This document shows positions 2,780 to 38,760 of a DNA stretch of 64,000 nt, piece by piece; position 1 is the first letter of the stretch; every line of letters begins with the position of its first letter. The stretch covers positions 1,488,001 to 1,552,000 of the forward strand of contig JAPNXP010000013.1 in the NCBI GenBank assembly GCA_028753945.1, in the 5' to 3' direction. The stretch is from Hexactinellida sp. DTS-2022 (Eukaryota; Porifera; Hexactinellida). A program made the translations under genes and the position numbers. Below the pieces are notes generated by a model. The model did not search any database. It was not told the origin of the DNA and saw only the letters and a program-made list of their open reading frames with translations.

Positions 2780-2879
2780 GGAGAGATTACACGTGGAGAA
2801 TGAGGAGGAGTGCGAAGAGGAGTGGTTTAGAAGTAAGAAGAGTAAATTTGTTATACAAAACCAACTGTTGATAAAGTTG

Positions 2880-13415: not shown

Positions 13416-14174
13416 TTAATGTCTTTAATTCTGGGGTTTATCTAGGATTTACGTGGCTGACACTTTATTAAAGAGGTATAAATTTAATGTCACCCTAAAG
13501 GTATTAGCCATAATACATAATCAGTATAATTCAATGATTCGACAGTATTTTAAGGAAGTAAATTGCTACGGTGCACAAACATTTGTTTGTCCAAGCATTT
13601 CTGGACGAGAAAATGTGGCCATTCACCCGGCACCTAATTAAGTGCCAACCCAGCACATAAATCGAATCGCAATTCACGCACTTTTTCACGACAACTGATG
13701 CCGGCCAGGCACCTAGATAAACCCCTGACATAATACCACTTGTTTCTATTGAGCGTTTTATATCTTATTATAATATAAGTGATAACTACCCTCTTTGTTG
13801 TGATGACGCCGCGAAACACAACTTTATCGTCCCACCCCTTAATTTGGGAGAGTCAGTCGAGATTAGGGAATGCTATTTCGTCGTGCAGCTTTTTGATCTG
13901 TGTCTCAGGGAGAATATTCAGTTTTGCTGGCGTTTGGACCTTGATTGGTTATGGATTGGAGAAACGAGATATTTTCATATGCATTTGAGTGCAAATATTT
14001 CGACCCGGACGATCCCCTGTATACTGTATATTGTCTATCATCGTTGTGTCATATCATACTAATGTCAAGCCTCACAATAAGTTCCGTGGTTAGGGGGGCT
14101 ACTTGGGTTAGAACCGGAGGGCTCGGAGGCAGTGGGGCCCCGAAATATAGGGGACAGTAATAGACAAATACACA
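13416..14174. other. No gene seen
   Basis: Short open frames only. 14086-14130 has a weak resemblance to a tRNA-derived repeat (GTGGTTAGGGG … GGTTAGAACC), too poor to call. Confidence 0.4.
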
Positions 14175-17002
14175 CACTGGGACGTAGCCAGTGGGCCTGA
14201 GCATTTTCAGAATTTATCCATTTGAAATGCAACATCAACCCTTAATTACCTAAGGTGGAACTGGACTAATTACAAATGGAAAATTTGTATTTTATTTGGC
14301 TTGAAATCTTAGTTATATGGTCGTACGTGTCAGTTTCCTTTTTTACTTCAAACATTTAATCAGTTTCAGTTCTGCTTGTAGCTTGCATTCATTTATACCT
14401 GTGTATGTCCGGTATTTAGCTTTTCCTTTAGGATAACCTGGCTACCTCTACTCCTTTACAGAGGATATTTTGTACTCAACAAGCTAACTCTTTGTCTGAA
14501 GTCTATAGCAATGATAACGATAATATTAGCATTGACGAAGAGACTATTCCTCCAAAAACTAAACAGGCCAAGTTTATGTTTGCTAACATTGATGATTCAA
14601 TTCATACTGACATTTCACAGGATATGCTACAGAATCAATTTCAACCTACTGTAAATAGACATTTGCTATTGGCTGATAAGCACGGTGAATTCTTTCAAAC
14701 GGCATGGTATACTGACAGATCTTGGTTGGAATATTCAGTATCGAAATCTCGAGCTTTTTGCTTTTGTTGCCGCCATTTTCCTAACACTCGCACTGGTGTG
14801 GTATGGTCGAGAGATGGCTTTGACAGTTGGAATAACGGCAAGAAGGCAATTGGCAAGCATGAAGTTGGGGGAAGCACACAAAGATAGTATGGCGTTGTGG
14901 ACGGCTATGAAGGTTGCAAAGCCTGGCATCAAGTCTTTAGTGAGTACACCGCACGCTACAGAAGTCAGACAAAACAGCGAGTATTTGGAAGCTGTTATTG
15001 ATGTTGTTCGCCTGCTTGGAAAGCAAGGACTGGCTTTCAGAGGACATCTCGAAGGTGAATCTAGTCAAAATAAAGGAAACTTTCTGGAAGTTATGTGCTT
15101 TCTCAGCAAGTATTCACCCATCGTGGAATAAAAACTTAAAAGAAAAGACGTTAGATATACATCACCAGAAATTCAAAATGATATAATATAGATTATTGCT
15201 TCTAGTGTGCGTCGCGAAATTGTTAGTGAAATTTCCTCTGCTCGATTCTTCAGTCTATTAGTTGATGAAACCAAAGATCTTTCCAAAACGGAACAATTTC
15301 ATTTTGCTTACGATATGTTTTAAATGATGAGCCACACGAAGAGTTCTTAAATTTTATTCCCGCTGATGAACTGAATACTCAAAGTCTGTTCGCTGTTATT
15401 GTGGAAACTCTTTCCAAAGAAGGTGCGATATCCAACAGTGTGTGCGCAGTCCTACGATGGTGCATCTGTAGTGTCAGGTCACTTATCCGGTGTTAGAAAA
15501 CCTATGACGGATAAAGTTCCAGGGTGCTTTTACATCCACTGTAATGCACACAAGATGAATCTCTGTATTGTGGATTGTGTTAAAGGTATTAGTAAGGTGA
15601 CTGATTTCTTCGAAATTCTCCAGAGACGTACATATTCATAAGCGATTCTGCTGCTCACAAGATATTTTTAGAAAAGCTTAAGTCAGCTAATAAGGACCAT
15701 AAGGCTGGAGACGAATTCAAACTAACCTTAAAACGGCATTCTGACACTAGGTGGGCTAGTCTGATTTGAGTCATATGCAGAGCAGTTCGCTCTTCCATAG
15801 AAATTATAGTCGCAACCCTTAATCATTTTGCTGATAATGAAGAAAGAAACGCCGATCAAAGAAATGTAGCTGACAGAATATCATCATAAATTACTACTAC
15901 TTTTATGATACATCTAGTCATGTTTGAAGAGATTTTTAGAGTGACTTCCATACTTGCAAGGTATCTTCAGGGCAAGACATTGGACCTCGCAAGTGCTATG
16001 CATCAAATTGAAACCATTGAAATTAAATTTGACATCGCTAGGCGTGATGCTGTATCTGCTGCAAGTCTTTGGCAGACCATTTGGGTAACCGCCCAAGCGA
16101 TCATAGGGAATTTAGAATTACCATATCCTGCTGCTCGATTCACTCGAAGGACTAGACACCAGACTGAATCTACAGCTGAAAACCCTAGCACCGAGGCTGA
16201 AAACCCTAGCACCGAGGCTGAATACCTCCACATTCTTTTCTATCCAGTTTTAGACAGAATACTGATGGAAATCAGAACCACATTCTGTGGCAGAAACACT
16301 GATATATATAAAGGCATTATTGCACTGAGTCCATTAGATCCAACATTTCTTGACACGGATGCAATTCTTGGTTTTGGGATCACATTACGCGGGGCCCCAT
16401 CAAAATGCAATATTTGAAGAACGATATTGCTGCAGTGCGGAGATTATTTGAAAGCTGTAAAGTTACTGCCGAAAGGTCTGGCACAGAGATGGGCAGTGTG
16501 AAAGCCCCAAGAATATTGTCGAGGTTCTCTCTAGTCTTAAAGAACTTAAAGAAGCTATATCTGAGTTTTATACACTTCTCAGGATAGCTGTGACACTTCC
16601 TATAACTACTGCTTCCTGTGAGAGAAATTTTCAGTGTTGAAGAGGATTAGAAACTGGTTAAGGACGACCAGCACTGATGGTAGACTAGGGGATTTGGGTG
16701 TTTTGGCTATATGCTCGAAACGTGCCGAAGCAATTCCAATTGAAGATATAATCTCCGAATTCAAGGCTACAGGACCAGGAGGGGAAAGGAAAATAGCACT
16801 TTAGTATTGCTTATTAGAAATCATAGATATTATTGTATTTTCATATTTAGCAATTATTAAACACTCTTGGAAAACATGTTTTAAACTACGTAATACGAAA
16901 TCAGCAAGTGATAAACAAATGAGATTATAAATAATTTGCAGGCCCTACGGCAAAGCCGCAGGTTCCATGAAGGCCCAGTCCGTAAACCTGGTTGCGCCAC
17001 TA
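14175..17002 (+). mobile_element. hAT element copy 1 (near-identical to inverted copy at 32.8-35.6 kb)
   Basis: The left end CACTGGGACGTAGCCAGTGG and right end (reverse complement TAGTGGCGCAACCAGG) are degenerate hAT termini. The interior matches copy 2 base for base wherever I compared. Exceptions are a deletion of about 50 bp just inside the left end, one substitution near the right end (GGTTCC against GGTCCC), and about 16 terminal bases that copy 2 lacks. The right flank GTTTTGAC (17003-17010) pairs with the flank of copy 2, not with its own left flank (see findings). Confidence 0.8.
14462..16800 (+). pseudogene. hAT transposase, TTF-type zinc finger + DUF4371 + hAT C-terminal domain
   Basis: This is the gene of hAT copy 1 and resembles the ZMYM1-like family of animal hAT proteins. 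AFCFCCRHFP (about 14752-14781) is the TTF-type zinc finger. SSARFFSLLVDETKDLSKTEQ (about 15235-15295) and CAQSYDGASVVSG (about 15440-15478) hold acidic core residues. FYIHCNAHKMNLCIVD (about 15530-15577) is the family's H-x-x-N/L motif. IAVTLPITTASCERNF (about 16585-16632) is the C-terminal dimerisation motif. Frame changes (first near 14860-14880) and several stops occur throughout, so the protein cannot be made in one piece. A 21-bp unit encoding ENPSTEA is duplicated at 16178-16219. The reverse copy carries the same defects. Confidence 0.8.
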
Positions 17003-17204
17003 GTTTTGACACCTTTACATATATGGTAATATTGTTAAAATCTCGAGATCAGTTAGCTTTAGACATATGAAATGTATTATTGTCGTATAGGAAGTCATAT
17101 TTTGGGAGTCCAACGGACAAATTGGATTATCGAAAACATTTGTGGAATGTGAGTTATGCCGTTTTGACACCTTTCCATATATGGTAATCTATGCTATTAA
17201 AACA

Positions 17205-17660
17205 CAAGGATGGGTGAGTGTATATATATGTGTATTTATTTGTTTGTATGTTCCGAGTTGATTGAAGAAAGTGGACGATTTCAAATTCTGATTTTTGTCA
17301 TATAGGGGTAACCTTTGGCACCGTCAACAAGTTGAGGTTTCCACTCAAAATTTCTCACACCTCGACAAGTTATGTGGTCATTGTCACATTTCGAGAACCC
17401 TGAAATTCACTTAATTGCACATAATTCGCGCTCAATTTGAGATAAAAATCTGAAAATTTAATGGAATATGCACATTAATGATGCGGACACGTTGGTCACA
17501 CAAGATTGCCAATATCATAACACATTATCGCATGATGACGTAATCAGAAAAATTTCACTTTGTAGATTGGCCTATTTACGCTTTATAATGAAGGTTTCTA
17601 AGTGTATAAACCACACACCAACCGCGAAGCGGTTGGTGTGTGGTTGTGATCTGCCGCGAA
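17205..17660 (+). repeat. Copy of the GCGAAGCG dispersed repeat inside the Galileo-like arm
   Basis: Has GTTTGTATGTTCCGAGTTGA, a CATTGTCACATTT box, ACATTAATGATGCGGACACG and the hairpin ACCAACCGCGAAGCGGTTGG (about 17616-17638), then GCCGCGAAGCGCG. No coding capacity. Class uncertain; the terminal hairpins suggest a Helitron-related nonautonomous family but a clean CTRR end is not seen. Confidence 0.55.
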
Positions 17661-19702
17661 GCGCGTTAGTATTAATGAAACCACGACAACAGTTGGGTCG
17701 ATTAGGTATTTCGTAATCGGTTAAAGTTAGACACATAAAATGTATTATTGTCGTATAGGAAGTCATAGTTAAGGAGTCCAACGGCATATTGGACTATCGA
17801 AAATGTTTATGGAATGTGAGTTATGCGGTTTTCACACCTTTCCATATATGGATATTTTTAATATAACCACGACAACAGTTAAAGTTAGGCATATTTAAAT
17901 ATATTATTTGCCGATAGGTAGTATAATATGGTGAGCTATTTGTCGTGATAATTATTTGCTATACCTCTAATGTTTAAGTTACAAGTTTGGATTTGATTAG
18001 CATGATAGTTAGCATGGAGAAAGTATTATCAACTCAATGTTGTATGTTGATTGCAAAGAATAATAATGCTTAGTTTTTACATTTTATTTCGTATTTACAA
18101 AATCTAGCATATAATCTCACAAGCAACACAGTAATCATGCAAAAACGTTGTGCAGCATTCAACTGTCGTGGTAACTATGATGGGGAACCATATAGTCAAG
18201 TTGTCAGTTTTCCCATAGATAGGGTTGAAAGGACAAGATGGATTGAGGCCATGCCAAGTGAACCTGGGAGTCTTAAAAATCGAAAATAGATATTTGCCTG
18301 TTCATCACAATTTGAAGCAAATGGGTAACTGTACTGGGAGGAAAGCGACCAATTGGACCTCCTACATATTTTAAAGGTGTGCCCAAGTCTTGTCAGAAGC
18401 AGTCTATTACACATCCAAGGACAACAGGAAGACTACTTTTGCTGTAAGGGATAAATTGCAGAGAGAGTATATTGATAAGTGTGATAAGATCTTAGATTTC
18501 ACCACTTTTGCAGAAGAATTTGAAAGACGATTCACATCATTCAGCGTTAAAAATCACGGAGAAAAATTGACAGTGTTCATGTTGGATTAATTAGGGAGTA
18601 AAGTGGTTCAGTATTTCTGCCTTAAGAAAGTAGAGTCTTGCTTTGGGTTTATTCATTTGTCTAAAGTAGAAAAGAATGGTCATGAAATCCCAAAGATAAT
18701 TTCCAATCTACAGAAGAATAGCCTCCTTCATAGATGGTCTCAGATGGAAGCAATCCTCTCGATTGCTAATAATTATGAAACTTCTAACAATGATCATTTG
18801 TTAAAGGCCATGGAAGAGTTGAAACAAATGACAATAGATGTACAAGAATCAACACATTTTCAGTTCATAGAGACCCAGCTAGAATTTCTCTTGATTTCAG
18901 ATAATAATATCCGATATACAAAACACCTACTGATTTTTGCAGGAGAACTTCTTTGTATATCTCCAGCTGCATACAGGATGATAAGAAATTACAGAATAAT
19001 AAAGCTCCCTAGGGAACAACTTGTTCGAAATTTAATGTCTCGTAGTTTCGCAAACAACAATCTGCCGCTCATATTCAAAGTACTGAAACCTGAGCAACGT
19101 CTTATTAACATACTATTTGATGAGGTAAGTTATTCAATACCGCGCGCTTAACAGCCGGCCACATCATTGGTTATGCTACTAATGCCTCAGAGGCAGTTGC
19201 TACATCTGCCTTTTGTATAGAAATTGTTTTCCATTACGGAGGACCACGCTTAGTGATTGGTGTTCATCGAGTTTCTAATAAATGCAGCGAAGGCTCGAGA
19301 TATTTTGATGGAAACAATTGAAGGATTGAGAAAAATGGATATCCAGCCAATATCCTTTATCTGTGATAACTGTCCGCTAAATCAAGGTGTGTTGGTGGTC
19401 ATGGGAAAGTGGAGGTATGCGGTGTCGATATGTAATTGTCCTTTAAAGAGAACAGTGTAGAAAATTTGGAATGTTGGAGAGACATCCAAGCTCTATATGA
19501 GGAAGATAAAAAGATGTCATTACGTCTTACAAAGCTTACTCACACCTCAGTCTTTCCTAAACCACTACAAAGACAGAGCGTACCGCTGGTATGTCAAGTC
19601 TTTCATGAAAAGACGATCGCAGCATTCAAAGCCTTAAAGGGTACTATCGTTTATCAGGAGAGAACTATTAAATTTCGGGACTGTTAAATTGCACCTTGGA
19701 CG

Positions 19703-20398
19703 CAGGGCCGGATCACCCAATAGGCTAAGTAGGCTGCAGCCTAGGGGCCCGTCGATTCTGGGGGCCCGATATAATCTGCTCGTCGTAAGTTTTTACATTA
19801 ATTAATACATTGTTGATCTATCAAAACGTAATTATTGGCCTACTAATAAGTAATTAAATTACAATCTATATATTAAAAGCACGATTGTTTCTTTGTTTGT
19901 GTGTGTTTGTGTTTGCCGGGTGTATTAAAGTGATGGGGGAATCGAAACCGCATTTATAATTGAGATAGACACTAACTTCAAAATTTTATAATAGGTAAAC
20001 AAGTATGCTGATTTCAAATTTCCAGTTACAAATTTCTAATTTCAATAATTGTTGTTGTTGTTGTTGTTAGTGTTGTTGTTTACACAAATAGGTGAACAAA
20101 TTAATTAAAATTCAAAATCGACCCAGAAGTAGGCTTTCATTGGGTTTTACGTAACATATTGTGAGTATGCAAAATGCTTGAAGGGATGTATATGACTAAG
20201 ACAATTATTAACAAACTATGTAATTTATTGTTTGATCAGGAGTAAGGCCGCGTAGCGCCAGTTAACTTGAGACCGAAGGGATCGTGATCATACAATTAAA
20301 TATACTAGTTATTTTGTGATCCATATTTTGATTGAAGGGGGGAGGGGCCCCCTAATTTTACCCAGCCTATGATCCCAGAGACCCATGATTCGGCCATG
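19703..20398. mobile_element. hAT-type nonautonomous element, 8-bp TSD CTTGGACG
   Basis: Left end CAGGGCCGGATCACCC and right end …ATGATTCGGCCATG are inverted copies. CTTGGACG flanks both (19695-19702 and 20399-20406). The subterminal TAGGCTAAGTAGGC…CCTAGGGGCCC is shared with the element at 52639-53703, so they are one family. It contains a Helitron-like insertion (19865-20308). Confidence 0.85.
19865..20308 (+). mobile_element. Helitron-like nonautonomous element
   Basis: It begins TCTATATATTAAAAGCACG, like many animal Helitron-type 5' ends, and ends ACTAG (CTRR), lying between A (19864) and T (20309). A small GC hairpin (GGCCGCGTAGCGCC, about 20247) sits about 50 bp before the end, further in than usual. 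A GTT microsatellite is at 20048-20082. No coding capacity. Confidence 0.5.
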
Positions 20399-21234
20399 CT
20401 TGGACGTTGAATTGTGACAACTTTAGCAAACTATCAGCAATGTGCGACGTTATAGATTCCTGTCGATGGGAAGGAGCAAGATTTCGAAAAAAAGCTTACT
20501 CAATTCACTGTCGATGCTTTTAAGATCACAACAAAATATTGTATTGTAGCCGCCACTTATCTATTGACTTACCACAATTTTCAGTATGTTATTCCTGCGG
20601 TTTTCTCACAAGACCCCTTGGAAATTCTTTTGGACAAGCCAGACAGCACAATGGAGGAACTTTTATATTGATATTGTTGATGTACTCTCTTTAGCCAAAG
20701 CATAGCGATTACATCAGTTGGTGAAATACAATATATTTCCTCAAGGAATTCCAGAGTTTACCTGCCCAGAATGTACAACTCCAGTCAGTTTGAAAATATA
20801 GAGCTAATGCAAGAGATCAGTATTGAAGACACGCAACTCCTCCTTGATTCAGGCAATACTTTATAGCACAAAGTAGTGTTCATTGCTGGATATATAACAT
20901 TTAAGCATGGTGAAATGGAAGGGGACCTAGTATCTACTGAATTTCTACAAGAACTCGACAGGGGAGGGCTGAGAGTGCCAACATTGTCCACGACTTGTTT
21001 TGTTCAAACTGCTGTTAATCTTCTTGAGTTACTTCCGAGGGTCAAAAATAGTTGTCGAACATATGTAATTAAAGTCCTTTCATTTTTTGATTATCCTCTT
21101 GCTGAGACAATGTAGCTCTATACTCATTAGTTAATACCTCTTAAAAGCTCAAGTTAACCGTGCTTGGATGTCTTCGACGAAGGGAAAAGTTACAAGAAGA
21201 AAATTATTAATTGTGAACAGTTTTTAGATACAGT

Positions 21235-21630
21235 CTATTTACTGATAATACTTTCTCCATGCTAACAATCATAGTAATCAAATCCAAACTTGTAACTTAA
21301 ACATTAGAGGTATAGCATAGCTATCACGACAAATAGCTCACCACATTAAACTACATATCCGAAAATAATATATTTAAATATGCCTAACTTTAACTGTTGT
21401 CGTGGTTATATTAAAATTACCATATATGGAAAGGTGTGAAAACCGCATAACTCACATTCCATAAACATTTTCGATAGTCCAATATGCCGTTGGACTCCTT
21501 AACTATGACTTCCTATACGACAATAATACATTTTATGTGTCTAACTTTAACCGATTACGAAATACCTAATCGACCCAAGTTCCAGGACCCGAGAATGAGC
21601 GCCTACAGTCCTTATTTAAAGGCGTCTAAG
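21235..21630 (-). repeat. Right inverted arm of the Galileo-like element
   Basis: Mirrors 17692-18030, including ACTTTCTCCATGCTAAC, CACGACAAATAGCTCACCA, AACTGTTGTCGTGGTTATAT and a CCATATATGG box at 21420-21429. Its outer 60 bp (CCAGGACCCGAGAATGAGCG…) are matched at 35768-35821 but not at 17692. Confidence 0.75.
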
Positions 21631-23914
21631 GGCAATGCTAACAAAATGTCTCCCAAATGGAGATTTTAACTTAAAGGTTTACTGTCCTTGGTAGCAATCG
21701 AATTATTGAAATCTTCTTCTTCTAGATTGTGGCTAACCTCGGTTAAGTTATGGTATTCATGAAGTATATATGATTCTAATGTACAGTGTAACCTTGCTAA
21801 CCGGGGCCTCGATAACCGGGGAGCGGGGAATTCTTTTTTTTATTTCGTCGTTTAATATACAAATGACTCTCTCTAACCGGGGAATTCTCCTAAGCGGGGA
21901 ATGGGGAATGTGATCTGGTTACGACTTCGTATATTACTTTAAATCCTAACCTCGCTAAACGGGGAATTTATAACATAAGTCGAGATGAATAGTATTATTA
22001 CAGTGTCTTACTAATAGTACTTTACTTACTACAAACAATCATTCTACTAGTTTCCCTAAATCTGAAAGTTTCTAGAACACAAATAAGCTACACGGCTAAT
22101 TAGAATTTCCGAAAAAGTCTGTGATGCTTGCCTGAATAAGTGTGCTAAAATATAAGTTTCAATAGAAAGTCAAGACCATAGGAAAATCAATAAATAGAGA
22201 CACCCTCTAACCGGGGACTGGGAATAACTTCAAAATCTGTAGTCCCAAATTCTCCGGTTAACGAGGTTACACTGTATTCATATGGGTTTTCACCTTTGCA
22301 CTTAATGATGTACTCTTAAAAACATAACACAAAGAACTAAATAATATATATATATCAGAGATGTCGGTACAGCGCACAATGAATCCAAGAGAATGTAAAA
22401 ATAGTTTTTTACATCCTTATTTAAATTGAATTTCTTGTATATATGATAAGCTACACTATGCATTAAATGGGCTGAACATAAGTGCAAAACTACTTGGTTT
22501 TCAGTTTCTTCCACATTGTTTACTACTCTACTCCAACACTTATCAAGATAAGAATCGATATCGCACCTAAGAAAAACATTGGATGTACTGTGAATTAAAG
22601 CCCAGCTGAAGTCTATTTCGATTAGTGAAATATTAAGATTACTCCCTAGTATTTTCTTTGCATTTAGGGACCATTTGTGTAAAAAATAAGTGATTTCAGC
22701 GCTTGTGTGTCCGAAAATAATCATCTCTGCTAGCGGAACTGGACAAGTTGTGTATGTAATAAAATACTTTCTTTTGTGACGGTTCAATTTTTCTAATTAT
22801 AGAACCAGTGGAGTCTAAGTGAAGGAATATGCTTTTTTCTTTGAAAGATGTTAAAATTCGAATTTGATCTTCGCTGTATAGATGAAGAATAAATGGATTA
22901 TGTCCTAAAAATTGAATGTAACCGGTAACATGACCACCAATGTTAATGCTCTGATAATACTGTTGTAGACTAATTAATTCAGTCCAATTGTCATTATAAT
23001 ATCTTTGTAAGCTAGATAAATCAAATCTCGCTTTCCGTAAGACTGAAGAACTTCGAATTTTTATTTAAATTGCCATAATTAAGTGCCAAGTCATTATTTT
23101 CGGATGACTCGAATTGATTATAGAAATACCTATTCACAGATGCATCAGTTAGTTCTTTTGCAACTTGAGTTCTTTGCAAATTAGATAAATTATCTGAATG
23201 TTGCTCAGATAAGGCACCAGAAGCTATATACTCTACAATAATAGTATCATTACTATTTAAATCATTTAGCCCCTTCTTGATTAAGAATGTAAATTCTAAA
23301 CAATTACTAAATTTACAAACTGCTTTTGCTCTAAAATAATAAGCATTTTGTTTTCTACTAATTTCCTTATTAATTTTTTTGTATTTAAAACAAAGTACAC
23401 ATACAAAAATACTCTCCATTTTTGTACTGATAAGTTGGTACAATTGTTCGAAAATTTGATACATTTTCTGCATTAGAGTAATACCATTCCATTCCTCTAC
23501 ACTAATCAAAAATTCGCCTCTTATCTCTTCTTTATCCATAAATGGATCAACAGTTAGTTCATTACCTAGTCCTAGAGTATCATCGGTGCCACTAATACAT
23601 CCGAATAGAGTCGGAATTACGAGAATATATGTTCGAAGTCCACCGAGAGAATGAGGTTTTGTGTTTATTAATACTGAGGTTTGTGGCACACTTGAAAACA
23701 AGACAATTTTGAATTTTTCGGATAAAGATGAATGAAATGAGTTCAGTATTCCTAAATTCTCAAGACTAGTTAAAGTAAATTTAATAAATACTTCTAGCTT
23801 TTGAACTGTAAATGCAATATACGAATTATCAAATATTTCTAGTACTTGACACTTGATATTTTCCACATTTATTGCTATTTCTGATACTAAATAGTCTATA
23901 ATATGCCAAACCAT
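21631..23914 (-). pseudogene. DDE-OTU transposase, N-terminal half (rest at 35822-37030 +)
   Basis: Reading leftwards on the - strand, ORFs at 23914-23021 and 22787-22302, plus 21783-21631, cover the N-terminal and central part of a large DDE transposase. I cannot place it in a named superfamily with certainty; it looks MULE-related. LHLDSTGSIIRK (about 22825-22790) gives the first Asp and IEIDFSWALIH (about 22625-22593) the second. HLCSAHLMHS (about 22490-22460) is the C-x2-H motif. After a pogo-like MITE (22274-21784) the gene resumes with EYHNLTEVSHNLEEEDF and SPFGRHFVSIA, ending at the Galileo-like insertion. The third acidic residue is in the displaced half. The first 297 codons are unbroken; two or three frame changes follow. 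Its 5' side is cut at 23912 by a P element. Confidence 0.7.
21784..22274. mobile_element. pogo-like MITE, 491 bp, TA TSD
   Basis: Left end CAGTGTAACCTTGCTAACCG and right end CCGGTTAACGAGGTTACACTG are inverted copies, flanked by TA (21782-21783 and 22275-22276). Several internal CTAACCGGGGA units. It sits inside the DDE-OTU pseudogene. Confidence 0.8.
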
Positions 23915-26550
23915 AGCCTACTCTATATATGTCCTGACAGTAACCTAGAATATGTGGACCAAGGATGAAGGAGAAGATGGTAATATTTATCCAACCACAA
24001 TATTTAATTTCAAAAATAATAATCATAATCAACCACATTAATTAGAAATATTCTTGAAATATATACAATTATTGATCAGATTTTAATCCAAACTCTTCTA
24101 TTGACGTAAAATCTCATCCTTTTAATTTCGCTTTGGTATTTTATTCATATTAGCTTCTATTCATGCCTAACTCGTGTTCTGTCCCCGGATGCAAGAGCAA
24201 CTACAACCCAAATGGCAATGTTCCTTGTGTTCAAGATGCCTCAAAATCCACCAACCCTGAATCATGCCTGGACATACGCTCTTCGTCGCGAGGATATCGG
24301 TGACCTGAAGGTGGTCTATGTATGTATCAACCATTTTCAGAAAGAAGACATAGACTACACTTTCCAAGTCCCAAGAGGAGATAGTACTTTCACTGAAGCA
24401 CCGTGGGCAAAGCCAAAGCTGAAGGAAGGCGCTGTACCAAGTTTGCTGCCCGGCTGCCCAGCGTATTGCTCATCCAAACCTTACAAACGGAATCGCTTCT
24501 CATACGATGCAAAAGAGGAAGAATTGATGAACCAAACACTCCAACTCAGCTTGAGATCCGAGAGTCAAGAGAAAGAGAAGTTTGTGGTAACTCTCCACAG
24601 GACTTGAAAGATAAGTTAACCTTGATTTCTTTACCTTATAGTTGGTTGGTGTGGTTCCGTAATGAGAGTAACATAACGTTTGTTCTCGCTAAAATGGCTG
24701 AAAAAATATCTCAGTAGATTTGTACCTTGAAATCAATGCTTATTTACCCACCTCAGCCTATTTTAATAGACAGAGTATATCCGTTTCCATTGCTGCAATT
24801 AGTGACATCCGAGAAATTGAATCTGTTTTGCAGGAACTTGCTTTAAAATCAACTCTAGTTCTTATTATGATTATCCCCTTAAGTTCGGTTGTGCATCCTT
24901 TGAAGATGTATGTCAATTATATAATTCAGAAGAACAAGTTTATCCAAGTTAGCTCCTCATTTGACTATGGAGTCATGTTTTCCGTCTAGCATAGAGCGTC
25001 AAAATGTAAAACTGGTTTCGAAAGTCGTTAACTAATTAACAATATCTGCGCTAACTATCCAGAATATAGAAATAATACTCCGGAGTTTGTTGATACCCTT
25101 CTTACTGTTTGGAAATTATTCAACGTTAACACACCATTTAAAGGAATACGTTTGAACGATATTTCTCTAGACCTTTGACTTTTAATGACGAGCGATTTCT
25201 ATTTTGACTCATGTAGTTTTGTTTAGATGCTTGGCAAACTTTACCAGAAAAAATTGGCAAACTGAGTAAACAAACATACACCAGTTTAGACATGCTTGTA
25301 TTACCTTACCACAAATTACCAATCATTTGACTCAATCTTATGGCTTTACATATGTGTTGTCCTCCTTTCTACAGACGGATCCCTTGGAACACCATTTCGG
25401 TCTATACCGTATGATGTCGGGTTCTAATTATCACATCTCCTATCTTGAAATCCTTGAACGGAGCGTCGACTTAAACTTTCTAGCATAATCAAACATATTT
25501 ACTGACCAACAAGACACTTCCTTTCAATCTATTCAGTCATTTGTTAAGTCATTTTCTTCTCCATATAGCGTATTCAACTACTGATGGTGAGTTCAATTTG
25601 GAGCCATTTCTTGATGCGATTAATGATCTATCAACAATTGATTGTGGTTCACAGTTGCTTCAATCATTAGCCTTTATTGCAGGCTATACTGTCCATCAGT
25701 ACCTGAACGAACAAAACCGTGTCATGTCTGTACATATGCTAACAGTTGATAAATAATTTCTCCTTGCTGGACTCTCAGTATAAACTTCTGCCGCTAACGT
25801 ACCGTGGCGGACTTAAGTATCCATCTGAGCCAGTTTTAAATTCCATATTTATTATATGGAAGACCTTTTGTGCCATCGAAAACAATAAAGAGCTGATGGC
25901 GAAGCTTGTAAGTGGACCTTCTAGAAAAATACTAGTTGTACTCACGTTGATGTATTTGAAAGATAGCGATAATCGTGACCCAAGTATTTGGAAGTCTACT
26001 TGTATTAGCTGTGGTGTGTTTAGTTGGAACATCTTATCGAAGCTCGTCTTAACTGCAGCGAATTGTTTTCTTGTAAACATTAACAAAGTTAAGAATTATA
26101 ACTCGCTGGTTCTTTCAAAAAGTATAGAAAGCGTAAATTTAAGAAATTCTCTTAATTATGTGTCTACTTATTTGTATTTACCATGATTTGTATTACTCTG
26201 TTATTCTTATTTCTATTATGTAGTTAAGTGTGTCATGTGTCACTGCTAGAGCCAGAGAGAGAAAGAGAAGAGAGGAAAGAAAGCAAATAATTGTGTATTA
26301 TTTACTGTATATTAATATAGAAATTGTACTGTTTGTGTTTATTATTACTATTAAATTATGAAAATCCAATCACCGTTCTCATTACAGCTAATACTAATCA
26401 CGAGCTAGCAGGGCTGAGTTATGTTTACGACCTAGAGACCCATAAGGAATTTAGTAGTTCAATATAGAAAACATTAAAAAATTAAAATTTCCCATCTTCT
26501 TGTGCATCCCTGGTACATCTACTGTCAGGCCATATATAGAGTAGGCTATG
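23913..26550 (+). mobile_element. P-type element copy A, 2.6 kb, 8-bp TSD GCCAAACC
   Basis: Left terminus ATAGCCTACTCTATATATG and right terminus CATATATAGAGTAGGCTATG are inverted over about 31 bp with one mismatch (starting at 23912). GCCAAACC occurs at 23905-23912 and 26551-26558, the 8-bp duplication expected of P elements. It is inserted in the DDE-OTU pseudogene. Copies B and C share the same terminal sequence. Confidence 0.85.
24163..26186 (+). pseudogene. THAP/P-type transposase of copy A, internally deleted
   Basis: The THAP finger starts MPNSCSVPGCKSNYNP at 24163. After a frame change it continues VFKMPQNPP…LRREDIGDLKVVYVCINHFQKED, so the C-x4-C and C-x2-H ligands are all still encoded. 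A RPKLKEGAVPSLLPGCP-like linker follows (the copy has AKPKLKEGAVPS). The region with the first catalytic Asp (MDEIHVK in sister copies) is missing: after SDIREIESVLQELALK (about 24800-24845) the sequence jumps to ERQNVKLV. LQTDPLEHHFGLYRMMSG (about 25370-25418) keeps the catalytic Glu. The C-terminal ORFs 25541-25756 and 25746-26186 hold LSFIAGYTVHQYL-like and SGPSRKILVVLTLMYL motifs. It could not make active transposase. Confidence 0.8.
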
Positions 26551-26639
26551 GCCAAACCAACCATAAAATTGGTCAATTTGCAACCAGGGTTGATTTTGAA
26601 GATGAAATTATTAATAACCCATAATGTATATATTCACTA

Positions 26640-29600
26640 ATGTACATATATAAACATTTATCTAAAAATTTGTATTTCCCCTATTATCTCGTTATTTCTC
26701 ACTATTTCTCTTTATTAATCCACATTTCTGATACTTTCCAATCTGTTTCTGGTAACCTAGCTATTATCATGCGCAACAACTGTTCTGCACCAGGTTGTAA
26801 AAGCAATTATGACCCAACCGACAGAATACCTGTGTTCAAGATGCCACAGACGCCGGATTAACTGAGACAATGCTTGGTTACGAGCGCTACACAGAGATGA
26901 TATTGATAAACTGAAAGTCGTGTACGTGTGCTCAAAACATTTTAGAGAAGATGAAGTCGAAACAACACAGAAAGTTCCCAATGGAGACGGAAGTTATCGA
27001 GAAATACCAAGAAACCGTCCTAAGCTGAAAGATGGAGCTGTGCCAACTATTTTACCAGGATGTCCACGGTACTATTCATCTCATACTGCCACCAAACGCA
27101 CACGTCTATCTCTAGAGGACAATGATGACGAACTTATCTATCAAGCAGTTAAACTAAGTCTAGAGTCAGATGTCGAAGAGAATGAAAAGTTCAAGATCCA
27201 CAGTTTCCATGATTTACAAGCTAAGTTACCCTTACTCTCAATTGCTAGTATATGGTCTACGTGGTATCCTGACGAATATACATTAATTTTTATGCGTCCT
27301 CGTATAGATAGTTGTAAGATTGAAGTTAATACGTACTTATCGGTAAATTTTGACTTTTCCGTCAAAGTTTTTCATAATGGTGTAAATCTTCCAATTTCTA
27401 TCGTAACGCTATGTGATGTTCGACAAATTGATTCGCTTCTAATTGAAATTTCTATTCCGCCATCTGCACCCAAAATCTCTGAGAATATTTCCACTAATTT
27501 TGATAACACATCTCATATCGCATCTGCGGAAAGTCATATCCAACAAGTTATTGATAACATGTACGACGGTAAATCTGATGATGACTTGGTTCCTTGTCCT
27601 GAAGTTTCAAGGCTCCAGTTTGTTCTTTGTCAGCTTCGAAATAGTCTTGTTCCAAAAAAGAGGCGGAGGTATAACGTATTGACGCAGATCTTAGCTCTTA
27701 AAACACATCTCATTTCTCCTGCTTTTTATCACTATCTACAGAGCATGTCTTGCATTTCTCTTCCTCATTCCAATACCTTACAAAAATTGTATTCATCTTT
27801 TGGACTTGAAAATGAATTCTTTATGTTTCTTAAAGAATCCACACATTCCTTTTCTCAGGAACAGAGGCATGTCATTATTCAAATGGATGAAATTCACGTG
27901 AAATCTGATATTTCTTATAAAGGAGGGAGATTGTTTGCTTCAAACCTCGATCCAGATAATCCTACCAAGACAGTTTTCGCTATCATGGTGTCGAGTCTGT
28001 ATAAGAAATGGTCTTGTATTGTTCGTCTACTCCCATGTGCTTCTGAAACAGCTGGAAAGTTCATGATGTTGAAGATTGTGGCTTGTTCGTTGAAATCATC
28101 TCCACTGACAACTACCCCCTTAATGTGAAACTTTTCAAATTGTTTTCCCCTAATAGAAAGCTGGAGACTCGAGTACCACACCCTTGTGATATAAGCAGAG
28201 GTCTTTTCCTTACATTTGACTTCGTACATATTCTGAAAACTATTCGCAATAATTGGTTGAATCAACAAACTGATAATAAGCTCTTTTCTTATCCTGAGTT
28301 GAACTGTATTTCTATTGACCAATGCGCTTATCCATTGAAAATCTGTCATGCTTCTTTCCGTGATATCCGTATACTATATAATTCTGAGAGAGATAGCCTT
28401 GCTAAACTTGCCACTCGTTTGACTTCTAAGGCTTGTTATCCATCCAATTTAGAACGTCAAAATGTTAAGTTGGTCCTAAAAGTAGTACACGAATCTACAA
28501 TTGCTGCTCTAGCTATCCAGGATGAGCAGCGTTCTCCTGCATTCAAATGCAACACTTCTGATTTCGTTGGAATTCTCCTATCTCTCTCGAAAATTTTCAA
28601 TATCAATATGCCATATAAACATATCAGGTGGAACGACCCATTGTCTAATCCAATAAGATTTAACGATGAGCGTTTTCTCTTACTGACTAGGATTGTCTAT
28701 TGGCTAGAAGCTTGGGAGCCACTGTCTGGGAAAGGTGGCAAATTAAGCAAGCAGACGTTTACCAGCTTCAAACAAGCATGCCTCGTGTTGCCACAGATAG
28801 CAAATTTTCTAACTCAGGACTGTGGGTTTTCATACCTCTTGACATCTTTCTTGCAGACTGATCCATTGGAACATCATTTTGGACTATATCGTATGATGTC
28901 AGGAGCTAATTATCATGTTTCCTATCTTCAGATCTTAGAATCAAAAAGTCGTCTTAAAGTATCCAATATACTACGTCTATTTTCCAATCAGAATGATTCT
29001 AGTACTTCTTTGCAGGAGTTCATTCAATCATTTTCACCATCGGATAGCGCAGATTCTACCAGTGAAGTTGACCTTGATCCTTTCTTGAGCGCTATATCAG
29101 ACCTCTCAGCCATTGACAGAAAATTTCAGGTACTTCAGTCATTAGCCTTTATTGCTGGCTATTCAGTACATCAACACTTGAAACGTAGTCAACCATGTCG
29201 TATATGCCTGGATTCTTTGACTATTGAAAGAGATTTACTCATCGATGAATCTGATACTATATCTAAGTTCAAACTATTAGAACTCTCTGATCGAGGAGGT
29301 TTGAAATATCCATCGGAGGTAGTCCTATAATCTATTGTCACTGTTTGGAAGATCTTTATTTGCATATAAAATGATAGCGAACTAATGGAGATATTTGTGA
29401 AAGGTCATTGTAGAAAAATTCTTGTTGACTTATCTATGAATGTATTATTAGATGCTGATGGTTGTAAATAATGGAGAGAGAAGTGTTCATCTTGTAGTGT
29501 GAATGGTTCCCATGTCCATCAGAAGCTTGTATTCGTAGCTGGGAATTGTTTCTTAGCGAATAAGGTTAAAAATTACAATTATATGGTGATTTTCAAGAAT

Positions 29601-30129
29601 ACTGAGAAGCGAAAGTTTAAAAAATTCCATTAAAGCATAGGTATTCATGTGTGTATTCTTAGTTGATTTGATTTTGTGTATTGTTAATTGGAACCACAAA
29701 TATATTTTATCATTTTACACTAGGTAACAGAAAGATTTAGTGATGTTCCCGTCAGAATAATAAATAGCTTGAGAAGTTCGATGCTGTTGCGAGATGTTTG
29801 ATGAAACTAATGAGTGATGAATGTACCGTGTTGCCTCTTATAATGTATTTGTGACCTGTAATTGTAAAATTATGTCTATAACTATTAAATATATGTTGAA
29901 TTATATATTAATATTAAATCAGCTGTGTTCAATTTTAGTATGCTTATGGGGTGGAAACCGTATTATCAGTGATATGATGGTTCTAAAGCTCTTAGAAAGG
30001 TTTAACTGACTAAAAATATACATCTTCTCTAAATTTGCTATTGCCTGTATTTTATCGTTTATATCGGCTAACACATCCCTGGTCCAAAATCCACATTTTG
30101 ATCTTAGGCCTTATGTATAGTAGGCTATG
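26640..30129 (+). mobile_element. P-type element copy B
   Basis: The right terminus …TTATGTATAGTAGGCTATG ends at 30129 and matches copies A and C, including the subterminal CATCCCTGGT at 30075. No left terminus could be found between copy A and the gene, so the left border is approximate and that end is probably lost. Confidence 0.6.
26769..29632 (+). pseudogene. THAP/P-type transposase of copy B, nearly full length
   Basis: The most complete THAP-to-C-terminus gene of the family here. The THAP finger starts MRNNCSAPGCKSNYDPTD at 26769 and ends VYVCSKHFRED. An in-frame TAA lies at 26859-26861 and a frame change directly after it. The long ORF 26920-28128 carries the linker PTILPGCPRYYSS and coiled region, then IIQMDEIHVKSD (first Asp, about 27880). 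A frame change near 28060 leads to ORF 28083-29330 with ISTDNYPLNV (second Asp), FDFVHILKTIRNNWL and LQTDPLEHHFGLYRMMSG (Glu, about 28865). A TAA at 29328-29330 comes before the C-terminal GLKYPSE/KILVDL region, which runs to about 29632 with further stops. All three catalytic acids are retained but about five breaks make it dead. Confidence 0.85.
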
Positions 30130-30554
30130 GTTAAAGTAATTTGGAAAAATCGCGGGAGGAAATGCCCCCAGACCCCCTTATTAGCTCGCTTCACTCACTC
30201 AGGACCAGTGCTCTACAAATTAGATGGTTTGGTGGCGTTAGCCACCAAAATCCCTTTAAAGCCACCAAATTTAAACTTTGGTGGCTTAAATAATCCACCA
30301 ATAATTGTGGAATTATTTGATGTTGTGTGGATTATATTACATTGTTCGTTGAATTATTGGTTATTTTAATATTAGTGTTGTTTTAAGACATCAGAAGTTT
30401 TCCAAGCCATCAGGGGTTTGTTAAACGGACCGTTGATAATTCTTTGGCCACCAGAAAAAGTGAAGTTGTGGCTTAATTAGCCACCATCTAAATTTTATTT
30501 TGTCGAGCACTGCTCAGGACCCCCCCAATCAAAAACCCTGGCTACGCCCCTGAG
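30130..30554 (-). mobile_element. hAT-like remnant with a nested hAT MITE
   Basis: The end at 30530-30551 (reverse complement CAGGGGCGTAGCCAGGG) is a classic hAT terminus. The opposite end near 30140-30180 (GGAAATGCCCCCAGACCCCC) is unclear. Split by the element at 30206-30512. Confidence 0.45.
30206..30512. mobile_element. hAT-type MITE, 307 bp, 8-bp TSD CTCAGGAC
   Basis: Left end CAGTGCTCTACAAATTAGAT and right end …TTTTGTCGAGCACTG are inverted copies. CTCAGGAC flanks both sides (30198-30205 and 30513-30520). Internally GGTGGC/GCCACC occurs many times in both orientations, giving strong secondary structure. Confidence 0.85.
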
Positions 30555-32766
30555 TATACTGTATATTTTAATCACATACAGTGAGTAAAAACTTAGCAAG
30601 AACCAAATATTTTCTAATACAAAAATTTTCGGCTATTCAAAACAAACTCCACTTAATTAGGACTAGCACAGAATATACCGCGTATAATCTAGGCTAGGAC
30701 AGATTAACTTCGGGTATAATTTGGGCTAGCCCAGATAATACCCCAAAGGAGTGAAAGGGCTTTTCACTCCTTTGTATTGATGAATAATAATCAGATATCA
30801 AATCGACACAATGGAATGTTAGAAATGTATGGCTAGTCAGACTGGAAAAAATATCTGATTGGATGAATGAACTTACTCTCGATCAATTAAAATGCAGTAT
30901 CAGATGGGCATTCTATAATGTACACTCAACAATTGATAGAGACACTAAATTCCATTTATACTAAATACATGTAGCTGATAATCCATACTGGAAAACCCTT
31001 GAATCTAATTAGTAAACTTTGTTAACTTAAGATAGAAGATGTAAATATGATTCATAGATATTTAAACTTGTTCCCAGAAACCACATTCCCCATCCTCCAG
31101 GCAATTATTAAGTCTGTAATCCTTACCAATTCCTCAATGAATTCCGAATAAAAATCCAAAATTGAAGCTGTGCCGACGCATGTTCCTTTGGTGGCACTAT
31201 ATTTTGGTGGTGGTTTATTGATAGTCCCTCCAAAGCAAAATGTTGTCGGAACAGCTGCAATTTTTTTCGCCATGTCATCATCACTATGAAGGTGTTAAAG
31301 TATTTCAGAAAGGTGTTTCAAAAGGCAACGACCCTTAGTTAGTTGGAAGTTTCGTTTTAGCTCACTTCATTTAAAGATATTCAAGTTTCTGTAGAATATA
31401 ATAATTGATGAGTCAGGATTTTTTATGTGCGTGTTGGGTGATCACCCAACAACAACCAAATACCCATTCGAATTATATAATTCACAAATTTGTAAAAACA
31501 CATTTTTTTAACGATCTCATCATCACCTCAAGGTGTCAGGACCCATTTGTAGAGGTGTTACGTGGCATAAGGATCAATTGATAAATTGGAAGTTTGTTTT
31601 TATCTTATATCATTTAAGAGATAAATGAAATTTAGCTAATCAGTATAATAATTTAACACCATTATTATGTACAGCAAAATAAATTAAGTTCAATTATTTG
31701 AAATAATTATTAATCTAAATTGAATTTCACCTTAATATTTGAATTCAGCGCACGCGCACTCGATAATCCCAATAATCTAATCGGAACCGTCTCTTTAAGT
31801 TAAACACAGAGCGGATTAATTATAATTTAATTAATTTTAATATGTCATTACCCATTGTTTGAATATCCTGAAATGGTTCTGAAATTGAATAACTGTTGAG
31901 TGAAAGTGAATTTTCATAATAGAGAAAACTTTAATACAACTATGATTTAGAAATTGATTTATATAGAGCTGATATTGAATTAAATTGAATTATTCATATA
32001 AATAGAATACTTTATTGTAACTATGATATCAGAAATTGATTTGTATAGTGATAGCTATTGAAAATGAAAATTAATTATTCATATATACTAGAATTCTTTA
32101 TTGTAATTATGATATCAACAATAACTTGAATCGAAATAACACTGAATCTAATTGAATTATTCATAAATAGTAGATCTTCACCGAAACCACGAAATAATTG
32201 CATGATTGAATATTAATGAATTTACGATTTTAGAAAGTTAAGGGAGAATTGTGGCAACTTTGAGCCTAATTATCAGGAAAATGTGGACGAATTTAAAAAA
32301 ACTTGAAGAGCTATCAGTTCCAAAATACTTTTCTGAAACTAATGATTGGAATTTTTTTCTTGTTATTGCTTTTATTTTCTTATGGGACGAAAAAACCCGT
32401 TAAAAGACTTGAGAAAATTTTTAACGTCCGTTAAAGTTTTTCTCAAGTCGAAATTGAAAAATCAGGCCAAGAAGTGCACATTATAAAACAACCAGAAACT
32501 ATTCTGAAAATCTCAGAGCTCTAGCACTTATGGTTTAACCTGGGGAGGCGACAAGGAGAAATAAAACAAAATCCAAGGCAGTAAGAATAGAACTGGGCCA
32601 CTATGCTATAGTAGAGAAGGCACAGTAAAAACACATAAAACCCACGTGATTAAATATACTGCATAAGATAACAAATCGCTATTACTTGTGCAAGTAATCA
32701 CCAACCAAGGTTTCTTTGTTACGCATGGATTTGACATTGAGCAGTAGAAAGATATTTTGTGTGAGT
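30555..32766. other. No gene; a direct repeat pair
   Basis: Segments 31269-31390 and 31505-31640 are diverged direct copies (CATCATCAC…AAGGTGT…ATTGGAAGTTT). A reverse-oriented relative lies at 48065-48180. GTTGGGTGATCACCCAAC (about 31434-31451) is a perfect palindrome. The rest is AT-rich with only short open frames. Confidence 0.45.
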
Positions 32767-35625: not shown

Positions 35626-35821
35626 GTGAAAACCGCATAACTCACATTCCACAAATATTTTCGATATTCCAATATGAACTTTGGACTCCTTAACTATGAC
35701 TTTCTTATCCGACAATACTACATTTATGTGTCTAACTTTAACTGATTAAGATATACCTAATGGACCCAAGTTCCAGGACCCGAGAATGAGCGCCTACACC
35801 CCTTATTTAAAGGAGTATATG
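35626..35821 (-). repeat. Detached outer arm monomer of the Galileo-like element
   Basis: GTGAAAACCGCATAACTCAC … CCAAGTTCCAGGACCCGAGA … TTATTTAAAGGAGTATATG matches the right arm 21430-21630 in the same orientation and is followed by GCATTGCC (35822-35829). It therefore provides the other outer tip of the element at 17003-21630. Confidence 0.75.
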
Positions 35822-37030
35822 GCATTGCCAAACTTTGCGAAAATGATATTTTTAATAATGCTCCAAAAAGTATACTAAATCCCAATCCTTGATATAATCC
35901 AGATCTTGTAGAATACTTGTCAACTTATTACTTCCCAATTTTACCTTTATGGAGTGGTATCATATTAGGATTGAATAGTATTTCAGTAGGTTCAAATTAT
36001 GCTCATTGTAGTAATGCTATCGTAGAGAATTGGATGCGTATTGTAAAGTTAAATATTTTGGGCTCTGAAACTAATTTAAGACCTAGAAATCTTATTAAAA
36101 ATTATATTCTGGTATAGTAAGTAGGATTCGTGCATTTCGGTTCGCCTTTAATCCGAGAGATAATATAGTTTTTAAGGTCATAAACGATTGAGACATAATT
36201 CGGAAGAGCAAAGTATTGAAGAGTGGTCAAGGAAAAGTAAACAAACATGTGGCTATTTAAAACCTAAAATTTAAGAATTTCCTATGACGAAAAAATCAAA
36301 GTTGATGATAAAGTACATAGAATTCTTGACAAATTGTCCCTAGAAAATATGAATTATTCTCTGCCTTACAGAAGGATTGTAGATTACCAGAATCCAAAGT
36401 AGCTTCCATCATAACTGATGAAGAACTGGTAGAAACGGGTATTATAAGTTATTACCAAACTTTCATCCACCTCACATTGAGTGGCAAATTGAAACTTATA
36501 AAAATTGGAATTTGCAATTTTGTCAGCAGGTGGGATACTCATTTTCTGATATCTTACCGAACGAGGAAGGTTAGTTTATTTATGATCCAAATTTCATGGA
36601 ATATATAGTAGATGATGGAAATTGCTATTTTTCTACTATTTCATACCTTATAACCGGAAGTAAAGGATATCATTTAGATATACGAACCCTAATAGTTGAA
36701 AATATGCTTTGTAAAATTAAGCATGAGCTGTAATAAATATTTGCCTACAAAGGGTAATTATAGTAATGTCCAGGACTGGGTTAACATAATTGGATTGAAT
36801 AAGAATGGGAAATGGGCTACGGACCTGGAGGTTTTCGCAACTGCACTGCTGTTTAACATTGATTTTTGGATATATTTGGGTCCTCTTGTAAGACGTTGGG
36901 CAAGCTTTTCAGGAATGGATCAAGTTATGATCAGCTAATAAAGACACAAACATCAAATGGTTTGTATATACAGAATTTGGCTAATCATTATGAGCCAATT
37001 CTTTCTGTTAAGTTAGGAAATCATACTTAG
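35822..37030 (+). pseudogene. DDE-OTU transposase, C-terminal half with OTU domain
   Basis: After SIA the frame continues KLCENDIFNNAPKS and, past one stop, NPDLVEYLSTYYFPILPLWS. Then comes GSNYAHCSNAIVENWMRIVK (36000-36048), whose Glu (36025-36027) is the likely third catalytic acid. From about 36500 the OTU domain begins. VDDGNCYFSTISYLITGSKG (36608-36667) has the D-G-N-C signature (Cys 36623-36625). WATDLEVFATALLFN is at about 36812-36856, and NLANHYEPILSVKLGN places the His at 36986-36988. About five frame changes or stops. OTU proteases remove ubiquitin; what one does for a transposase is unknown. The N-terminal half is at 23914-21631 on the other strand. Confidence 0.7.
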
Positions 37031-38360
37031 TAGTATTTCTCAATATTGTATTATTTATTTAATTAAAGTTATGTCAAATAAATCACTTGTTTATCATCCC
37101 ACCTTTCTCAATATTATTCTCCAAATAGCAACTACTATAACATCTCAATGTAAAGTTCTCCTCAGTATTAATATCTTGTATTTAACAGTAACAATCTTAT
37201 GAACACATGACATGTTATCGGCTACAAAGAAACTATCCACTTTAATCTATTTTATGAAAGTAGATGAATGTAAATTATTGTTGATACTATACTTAGGCTG
37301 ATGAGGATGATGATATAGTCCAAAAGTAAACAACATACGTGCATACTACTTTATAATTACGCAATTAGTTCTACCTCTTCCCTGTCAACAATTAGTTCTC
37401 TCTTTTTCCTAGTTAAATTAGATTTCTCTAATTCGAGTTCTCTCTTCTAATTAATATGTATATTGCTTGTTTGGAGAGATCAATTGACAATTAATCGCAA
37501 GCCATCAAAGTCGATCGATTGAAAATCTTCAAATCAATGAATTGTAAATATAATTTTATGGTATTGTCAAACCAGTGTTATCAACTTATCATAACTTATA
37601 TAACTATTCATAAAGTCGATGAATTATTACGCTCTTGTTGTAAGTTATATTCTTTATAAATATTTTTCAGAAAACTAGGTATGAGATTTATCCTCTAGTT
37701 CTTTAACAGAGCAGATACGAATATTTGATGAGATATGAAAATCGGCTGAATTAACCCGCTGATAACCACTTGTGACCCACATGCCCATATATGGGCATAA
37801 AGTTGTTTAGTTCCATTTCCGTGACCCATCGGTGGTAAACGTCGTGTTAAGAACGTACCAAAAGCAATCAGAGTCGTTAGAAGTTACTCAAATTATTATA
37901 TGGAAATGAAATTTGGATAACCTAGTTTGAGTTGGTAAAAAGCAACTTCAATCGATAGTAATTTGAATAATTTTTTGTGTATTGATGTATTATTAGGAAA
38001 GATTGTATTCTAATTATTTGATTTGTTTGTACAATTATGTGAAGTATCAAAAACAATTTATTACGTATTGATGAATAAGTGTTTAGATAAACTCAATAGA
38101 ATGGGAACTAAAAGGAGAAGGATGAATCGTTGTACTTACCGAAAGTATAATTAATAATCTTTTATGTCATGAAATGTTGGTGTAGGCTTTAATTAAATTG
38201 TGAAGATATCCAAATTTCAAAGATAATAATTTTGAGGAGTTTACACACGATTAGTTTTAGTAGTAGCATAACGAAGAATGACATCCTTATTTACTAATCA
38301 TTTAAATTTGTACTTTTTCGTTACAAAAACGAGGATAAAATGTAATACAATTTACGGAGT
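37031..38360. other. No gene seen
   Basis: AT-rich. A short hairpin at 37780-37797 (ATGCCCATATATGGGCAT) is the only structure noted. Likely intron or intergenic. Confidence 0.4.
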
Positions 38361-38499
38361 CAGGGGCACCGGCGACCCGCCGGAGCAACGGGTGCACGAT
38401 AAACCAAAACCGGGGGTGCAAATCCCCCCCGCACTCCCCCTTCATGCAAAATAAAAAATTGACCGGAGCAACGGGTGCACCCGTGCCGCCGGCGCCCTA
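38361..38499. mobile_element. Small GC-rich hAT-like MITE
   Basis: CAGGGGCACCGGCG at the left is mirrored by CGCCGGCGCCCTA at the right. CCGGAGCAACGGGTGCAC occurs twice in direct orientation inside (about 38380 and 38463). GGAGT lies on both sides, a degraded target duplication. Confidence 0.6.
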
Positions 38500-38659
38500 G
38501 GGAGTATAAATTGATAAGAAATGCTTATGTGTACAGTATGAAAAACGTGTTAATTAATTGACTTAATTAATTATCACGCACTAATACAGAAAAGCTGCTC
38601 GTCCCTCTATATAGCTAATATTAGACATACTGTACCATTGACCGTAAAACAAATTTTGA

Positions 38660-38760
38660 GATCTTGTGGACCCCCTACTGCCGTCCGGGAACGCCAGGTG
38701 GACCACTGAGCTAAAGGATAAAAACCCTTCGCAGACGAATGGGAGTGTGCTTCTTCTGGT
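38660..38760 (-). repeat. Possible tRNA-derived SINE fragment
   Basis: On the - strand CCTTTAGCTCAGTGGTCCAC resembles a tRNA A box. A related TTTAGTTTAGTGGTTTATC occurs on the - strand at about 47310. The B box is poor and no tail is visible. Confidence 0.25.

What the first reader, a model, noticed from the sequence alone, without database searches (positions are those of the whole stretch)
17003..32766. A 15.8-kb inversion between two inverted hAT copies, readable from target-site footprints
The DDE-OTU transposase gene is in two halves on opposite strands: 23914-21631 (-) and 35822-37030 (+). GCATTGCC lies at both broken edges (21631-21638 as its reverse complement, and 35822-35829), each next to an outer tip of a Galileo-like element. 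hAT copy 1 is followed by GTTTTGAC and hAT copy 2 is followed by GTGAAAAC (reverse complement GTTTTCAC), so the two outer flanks match each other at 7 of 8 bases. Flipping 17003-32766 restores one gene, one Galileo-like insertion with its duplication, and one hAT insertion with its duplication. The protein frame …SPFGRHFVSIA then continues into KLCENDIFNN.
Basis: partly seen in the sequence, partly recalled or inferred. Interest (0 to 1): 0.9.

Follow-up and report, generated by a model that had tools for sequence, protein, structure and literature searches.

The report
Inversion flanked by identical hAT transposons
Two nearly identical, oppositely oriented copies of a jumping gene flank a 15.8-kb stretch of an animal chromosome (probably a glass sponge) that has been flipped around, and uninterrupted copies elsewhere in the same genome show how the pieces were joined before.

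Summary
Two hAT copies (14177-17002 +, 32764-35625 -) flank 17003-32763. Their flanks match at 0 and 1 of 8 bases as they stand; after flipping, one pair matches at 7 of 8 and the other is damaged. Uninterrupted copies in the same genome show the original joins. Transposase gene: 5 of 6 fetched paralogues run straight from half 1 into half 2 with one GCATTGCC. P-element arm: 44 of 46 matches cross the hAT site. The present joins are crossed by 0 of 114 and 0 of 69 matches. The hAT copies are identical over 2,763 interior bases; every difference lies near the tips, so the interiors were homogenised and the event is young or ongoing. Best mechanism: ectopic recombination between the two hATs. 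Not excluded: hybrid-element insertion, or an assembler taking the wrong path through a near-perfect inverted repeat; reads are needed. Transposon-mediated inversions of this kind are already known.

The parts
14177..17002 (+). hAT copy 1 (5' tip next to flank A, 3' tip next to flank B)
   Evidence: family ends set with other copies of the genome
32764..35625 (-). hAT copy 2 (3' end lacks the last 13 bases and joins flank C; complete 5' end joins flank D)
14201..16963 (+). interior of hAT1, identical over 2,763 bp to 32790-35552 (-) of hAT2
17003..32763 (.). inverted segment (15,761 bp)
14092..14176 (+). flank A: left part of a split repeat of about 175 bp, ending in TACACACA (14169-14176)
32668..32763 (-). 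flank C: right part of the same repeat, beginning CACACA (32763-32758)
17003..17010 (+). flank B: target duplication GTTTTGAC
35626..35633 (-). flank D: target duplication GTTTTCAC
17003..21630 (.). P-like element, larger part, inside the inverted segment (broken transposase frame 18591-19148)
35634..35821 (.). P-like element, outer part of its left arm, outside the inverted segment
21631..21638 (-). GCATTGCC, duplication of the P-like insertion, inner copy
35822..35829 (+). GCATTGCC, duplication of the P-like insertion, outer copy
21631..23866 (-). first half of the broken DDE/OTU-type transposon gene (with an inserted repeat 21783-22272)
35822..39410 (+). second half of the same transposon, including the stretch 39066-39410 that its paralogues carry inverted at their other end (terminal repeat)

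Best explanation
A DDE/OTU-type transposon was entered by a P-like element (8-bp duplication GCATTGCC); the left arm of that element was entered by a hAT element Y (duplication GTTTTCAC). Another hAT element, X, sat 15.8 kb away in the opposite orientation inside a repeat of about 175 bp. X and Y recombined with each other (ectopic recombination with crossover), which flipped the DNA between them and exchanged their flanks. The same exchange, by long-tract copying, or later exchanges made the two interiors identical, while the outermost tips kept their differences. Shown here: both original joins, the exchanged flanks, the interior identity and the differing tips. Inferred: crossover as the mechanism, that X and Y were separate insertions, when the homogenisation happened, and that the inversion is in the animal and not only in the assembly.
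For: Gene join: 5 of 6 fetched paralogues abut with an exact 8-base overlap, one reads through in one frame. P-arm join: 44 of 46 matches cross it, several being tandem units of one copy; 26 nearly end to end at 89-95%; 9 fetched copies read through. Second breakpoint: 4 of 13 matches cross the A+C join over 164-170 bp at 75-81%. Present joins: 0 of 114 (A+B) and 0 of 69 (D+C) cross. hAT copies normally have matching duplications: 14 of the 16 copies (of 18 examined) in which both ends were found match at 8 of 8. Each present copy pairs one odd outer tip (A or C side) with one family-like tip (B or D side), as expected of exchanged halves.
Against: The chimeric nature of the copies, the mark that separates ectopic recombination from hybrid-element insertion, cannot be read from an interior without a single difference. 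The A/C duplication is damaged (6 bases left, CA-rich) and is weak on its own; the first A+C test against loci then held crossed nothing, the genome search did. The D-side 5' tip also departs from the other copies, so 'worn X tips, fresh Y tips' is not clear-cut. The control searches score only the 40 best candidates. No reads were seen.
Confidence: 0.68

Rival explanations
1. Assembly error: the animal has the uninverted order, and the assembler left the near-perfect 2.8-kb inverted repeat by the wrong exit, flipping the segment in the sequence only.
For: The copies are identical over 2,763 bp, so short sequences inside them cannot tell the two exits apart; all flanks are explained by the uninverted order.
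Against: The window has no N and the contigs reach 17.6 Mb, which suggests but does not show long-read data; reads longer than 3 kb would resolve the repeat.
Confidence: 0.15
2. Hybrid-element insertion (aberrant transposition from one site): a single hAT lay at A|C; [quoted passage not shown]
For: It predicts identical copies and the same exchanged duplications (PMC2775673 section 10 part 1); the interiors are identical. hAT elements are known to invert DNA by alternative transposition in maize (PMC8225341, passages).
Against: The 5' ends of the two copies differ by a 50-bp gap, a 1-bp gap and two substitutions and the 3' ends by two substitutions and a 13-bp loss, against none in the interior; this needs later change at the tips followed by homogenisation. 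Two copies at separate sites would leave deletions or duplications; none was seen beyond the small loss at C.
Confidence: 0.13
3. Inversion by staggered breaks around a single hAT, whose filled-in ends doubled the hAT in inverted orientation.
For: It gives identical inverted copies, one truncated at its junction, as hAT2 is.
Against: hAT1 has a family-type 5' tip of its own next to A, not a cut-off copy of hAT2's 5' end, so a second hAT-family element was there.
Confidence: 0.03

Closest known systems
Galileo-generated inversions of Drosophila buzzatii, such as 2z3 (Delprat et al. 2009, PMC2775673; passages, and section 10 part 1)
   Same: Two copies of one cut-and-paste transposon in opposite orientation at the two breakpoints, with exchanged target duplications.
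   Different: There the inversion is large and polymorphic and uninverted chromosomes were sequenced, and both copies are demonstrably chimeric. Here it is 15.8 kb, known from one assembly, the element is hAT, the interiors are identical, and the original joins are proved by paralogous copies.
Ac/fAc inversions by reversed-ends transposition in maize (PMC8225341, passages)
   Same: hAT-superfamily elements at both breakpoints with an 8-bp duplication across the two breakpoints.
   Different: That reaction starts from two nearby copies in direct orientation and loses the stretch between them; here the two outer flanks A and C were contiguous, which leaves only the single-site form of aberrant transposition.
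hAT-derived MITE arrays at Atlantic cod inversion breakpoints (PMC12368964, passages)
   Same: hAT-type elements as the proposed substrate of ectopic recombination in an animal.
   Different: Large inversions with tandem MITE arrays; the passages I saw do not use exchanged target duplications as evidence.
Inversions between the glass sponges Aphrocallistes vastus and Oopsacas minuta (PMC10282587, passages, and section 6)
   Same: Probably the same animal class; the authors name what directs inversion breakpoints as an unresolved issue.
   Different: Those inversions span many genes; section 6 ties no transposon pair to a breakpoint.

Membership tests
TE-mediated inversion by ectopic recombination (criteria of PMC2775673) | Two copies of one element in opposite orientation at the two breakpoints | tested here: met
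TE-mediated inversion by ectopic recombination (criteria of PMC2775673) | Exchanged target duplications | tested here: met
   D/B 7 of 8, present pairs 0 and 1 of 8; the A/C pair is damaged, but both joins are crossed by uninterrupted copies
TE-mediated inversion by ectopic recombination (criteria of PMC2775673) | Both copies chimeric | tested here: inconclusive
   no variable site in 2,763 interior bases; only the tips differ
TE-mediated inversion by ectopic recombination (criteria of PMC2775673) | Uninverted chromosome seen in another individual or species | not testable with these tools
   no reads, second haplotype or related animal genome available
Hybrid-element insertion | The two copies are identical | tested here: inconclusive
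   interiors identical, tips differ
hAT superfamily | 8-bp target duplication | tested here: met
   8 of 8 in 14 of the 16 copies with both ends found, of 18 examined; L066 and L067 share one flank; L070 and L072 match at 5 and 2 of 8
hAT superfamily | hAT-type transposase | tested here: inconclusive
   DUF4371 36.2 bits, cut-off 32.1, in frame 14655-15131; that DUF4371 is typical of hAT proteins is recalled; the C-terminal frame given to (15890-16417) had no match
Galileo | 7-bp target duplication | tested here: not met
   8 bp, GCATTGCC, single in 5 uninterrupted paralogues
P superfamily | P-type transposase | tested here: inconclusive
   Tnp_P_element 18.2 bits, cut-off 23, in frame 18591-19148
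DDE-OTU transposase | OTU domain and DDE domain in one protein | tested here: inconclusive
   OTU 21.1 bits, cut-off 23.3, in paralogue L049; relative P0089 bears PF02338; no Pfam match for a DDE domain

The most novel reading that the evidence does not exclude
The locus is a live toggle: the identical hAT pair keeps pairing and exchanging, so that both orientations segregate in the population, and each exchange re-homogenises the interiors while the tips and flanks keep the record. The exchanged duplications would then mark only the last flip.
Probability: 0.2. Interest if true: 0.6.

Novelty: new member of a known kind. Interest (0 to 1): 0.38.

Why it matters
It is an unusually complete record: nested insertions give three joins, each checked against uninterrupted copies in the same genome, so the case for an inversion can be made from one assembly without a second strain. 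It gives a cause for an inversion in what is probably a glass sponge, a group for which PMC10282587 (section 6) calls the cause of breakpoints unresolved. Identical interiors with differing tips are a simple sign of exchange between inverted copies that could be screened for genome-wide.

Tried and rejected
Organism: I first guessed Xenoturbella bocki from 18 contigs and about 112 Mb (recalled). Its published assembly has 43% GC, many Ns and a largest scaffold of 8.8 Mb (passages); here C1 has 17.6 Mb and the window is about 35% GC, so I dropped it. Of 88 relatives of the frame 26866-28128, the 5 that carry a source's name are all from the glass sponge Oopsacas minuta; the species is not identified.

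Reversed-ends transposition between copies at different sites: set aside because A and C were contiguous. Two independent hAT insertions at the same point of two P-arm units: set aside because the gene halves and the A+C join also need the flip. A short 5' form like hAT1's occurs in the small copy L068; I could not tell shared origin from a recurrent deletion. The bases 23867-23911 beside half 1 have no counterpart in the six paralogues and stay unexplained.

Full report
What is there. The window is C5:1488001-1552000 of a 112.4-Mb genome in 18 contigs. Two hAT copies in opposite orientation, 14177-17002 (+) and 32764-35625 (-), flank 15,761 bp. Flank names: A, left of hAT1; B, right of hAT1; C, left of hAT2; D, right of hAT2 (C and D are read on the minus strand). 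The family's ends and its 8-bp duplication were set with 18 other copies of the genome: in 16 a script found both ends, and 14 of those have perfect duplications. As they stand, hAT1 (A/B) and hAT2 (D/C) match at 0 and 1 of 8; flipped, D/B match at 7 of 8.

Join 1, the gene. Half 1 (21631-23930) and half 2 (35822-37100) were searched against the own genome (only the best 40 candidates are scored). Six regions in which both halves were listed were fetched. In five (L049, L050, L051, L053, L054) the halves abut with exactly 8 shared bases, a single GCATTGCC; in L052 the site itself is altered. L049 reads through the join in one open frame. On the 1,365-aa relative P0089 the halves fall on residues 448-878 and 951-1358; they are also consecutive on P0090, P0091 and P0093 (4 of 4 compared, of 7 relatives found).

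Join 2, the P-like arm. The joined D+B sequence with one GTTTTCAC (347 nt) has 46 matches. 44 cross the hAT site, 26 of them nearly end to end at 89-95%; several of the 44 are tandem units or opposite arms of one copy. The two that do not cross are the window's own D flank and a 72-bp piece. Nine copies fetched and aligned read through the site without a hAT, and all nine begin CATAGACTCC.

Against loci then held nothing crossed an A+C join. In the whole genome the joined A+C sequence (300 nt, one TACACACA) has 13 matches: two are the window's own halves, four cross the join over 164-170 bp at 75-81% (C1:11213781, C14:2063033, C14:3187080, C11:6527693), one covers the C side only and six a separate stretch of A. 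The alignment shows A and C as two halves of one repeat. So A and C were neighbours. What remains of the duplication is TACACACA at A and CACACA at C, consistent with a 15-bp loss taking hAT2's last 13 bases and two bases of the duplication; the stretch is CA-rich, so this alone is weak.

Controls. The present neighbours with the hAT taken out, A+B and D+C, are crossed by 0 of 114 and 0 of 69 matches. These searches score only the 40 best candidates, mostly P-arm copies.

The hAT copies. Aligned end to end (2,826 and 2,862 bp) they differ by 4 substitutions (14178, 14200, 16964, 16987), a 1-bp gap, a 50-bp gap near the 5' end and the missing 13-bp tip of hAT2; 14201-16963 is identical over 2,763 bp. 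The next full-length copy, at C5:1783981, is 93% identical. Spread evenly, four substitutions would all fall in the outer 49 of 2,812 aligned bases with a chance of about 1e-7 (my arithmetic). So the interiors were homogenised and the tips were not. Zero differences in 2,763 bp bound the divergence since then at about 0.11% (95%; 3/2763, my arithmetic).

Mechanism. PMC2775673 (section 10 part 1) sets out the choice: ectopic recombination gives exchanged duplications and chimeric copies; hybrid-element insertion from a single site gives the same picture with identical copies. Here the duplications are exchanged and the interiors identical, but the tips differ. Ectopic recombination with long-tract copying explains the flip, the exchanged flanks and the identity in one event; hybrid-element insertion needs later change at the tips and then homogenisation. 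I prefer the first and do not exclude the second. Because the interior carries no variable site, the chimera test cannot be made. The third possibility is a wrong path of the assembler through a near-perfect repeat; the window has no N, but the reads and the assembly method are unknown to me.

Organism. The 5 named relatives among 88 of the frame 26866-28128 are from the glass sponge Oopsacas minuta. A hexactinellid assembled from PacBio data with hifiasm is in print (PMC10232365, passages: estimated size 141 Mb); whether it is this genome I cannot say.

Novelty. Inversions by ectopic recombination between transposons, hAT elements included, are in print (PMC2775673, PMC8225341, PMC12368964; listings). 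A search for 'sponge genome', 'transposon' and 'chromosomal inversion' listed two papers; one is on a human disease by its title, and in the other (PMC10282587) I read passages and section 6, which report no such case. The kind is known; this is a well-documented new case.

Noticed in passing
21783-22272: A repeat of about 490 bp sits inside gene half 1; one search lists it at more than 20 other places at 94-98% identity, and paralogues L049, L050, L051 and L053 lack it at this spot. Its ends read TACAGTGTAACC / GGTTACACTGTA.
   Followed up: partly
23867-23913: The paralogues' homology to half 1 stops at 23866; about 45 unexplained bases follow before a P-like element. The window copy lacks the 5' part of about 1.1 kb and the 5' terminal repeat that its paralogues have.
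   Followed up: partly
23914-30140: Two further P-like elements side by side; the frame 26866-28128 has THAP and TNP-like RNase H domains. The first is flanked by a 7-bp direct repeat GCCAAAC (read by eye), unlike the 8 bp of the split element.
   Followed up: partly
2730-3439: Another fragment related to the OTU-type transposon protein (matches to P0091 and P0089).
   Followed up: no
58273-59599: Inverted and tandem units related to the P-like arm (units of about 157 bp).
   Followed up: no
31147-32636: Two highly repeated stretches beside flank C: 225 matches in the genome, often clustered.
   Followed up: no
13433-13728: A short repeat beside flank A, found at some 37 other places in the list.
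   Followed up: no
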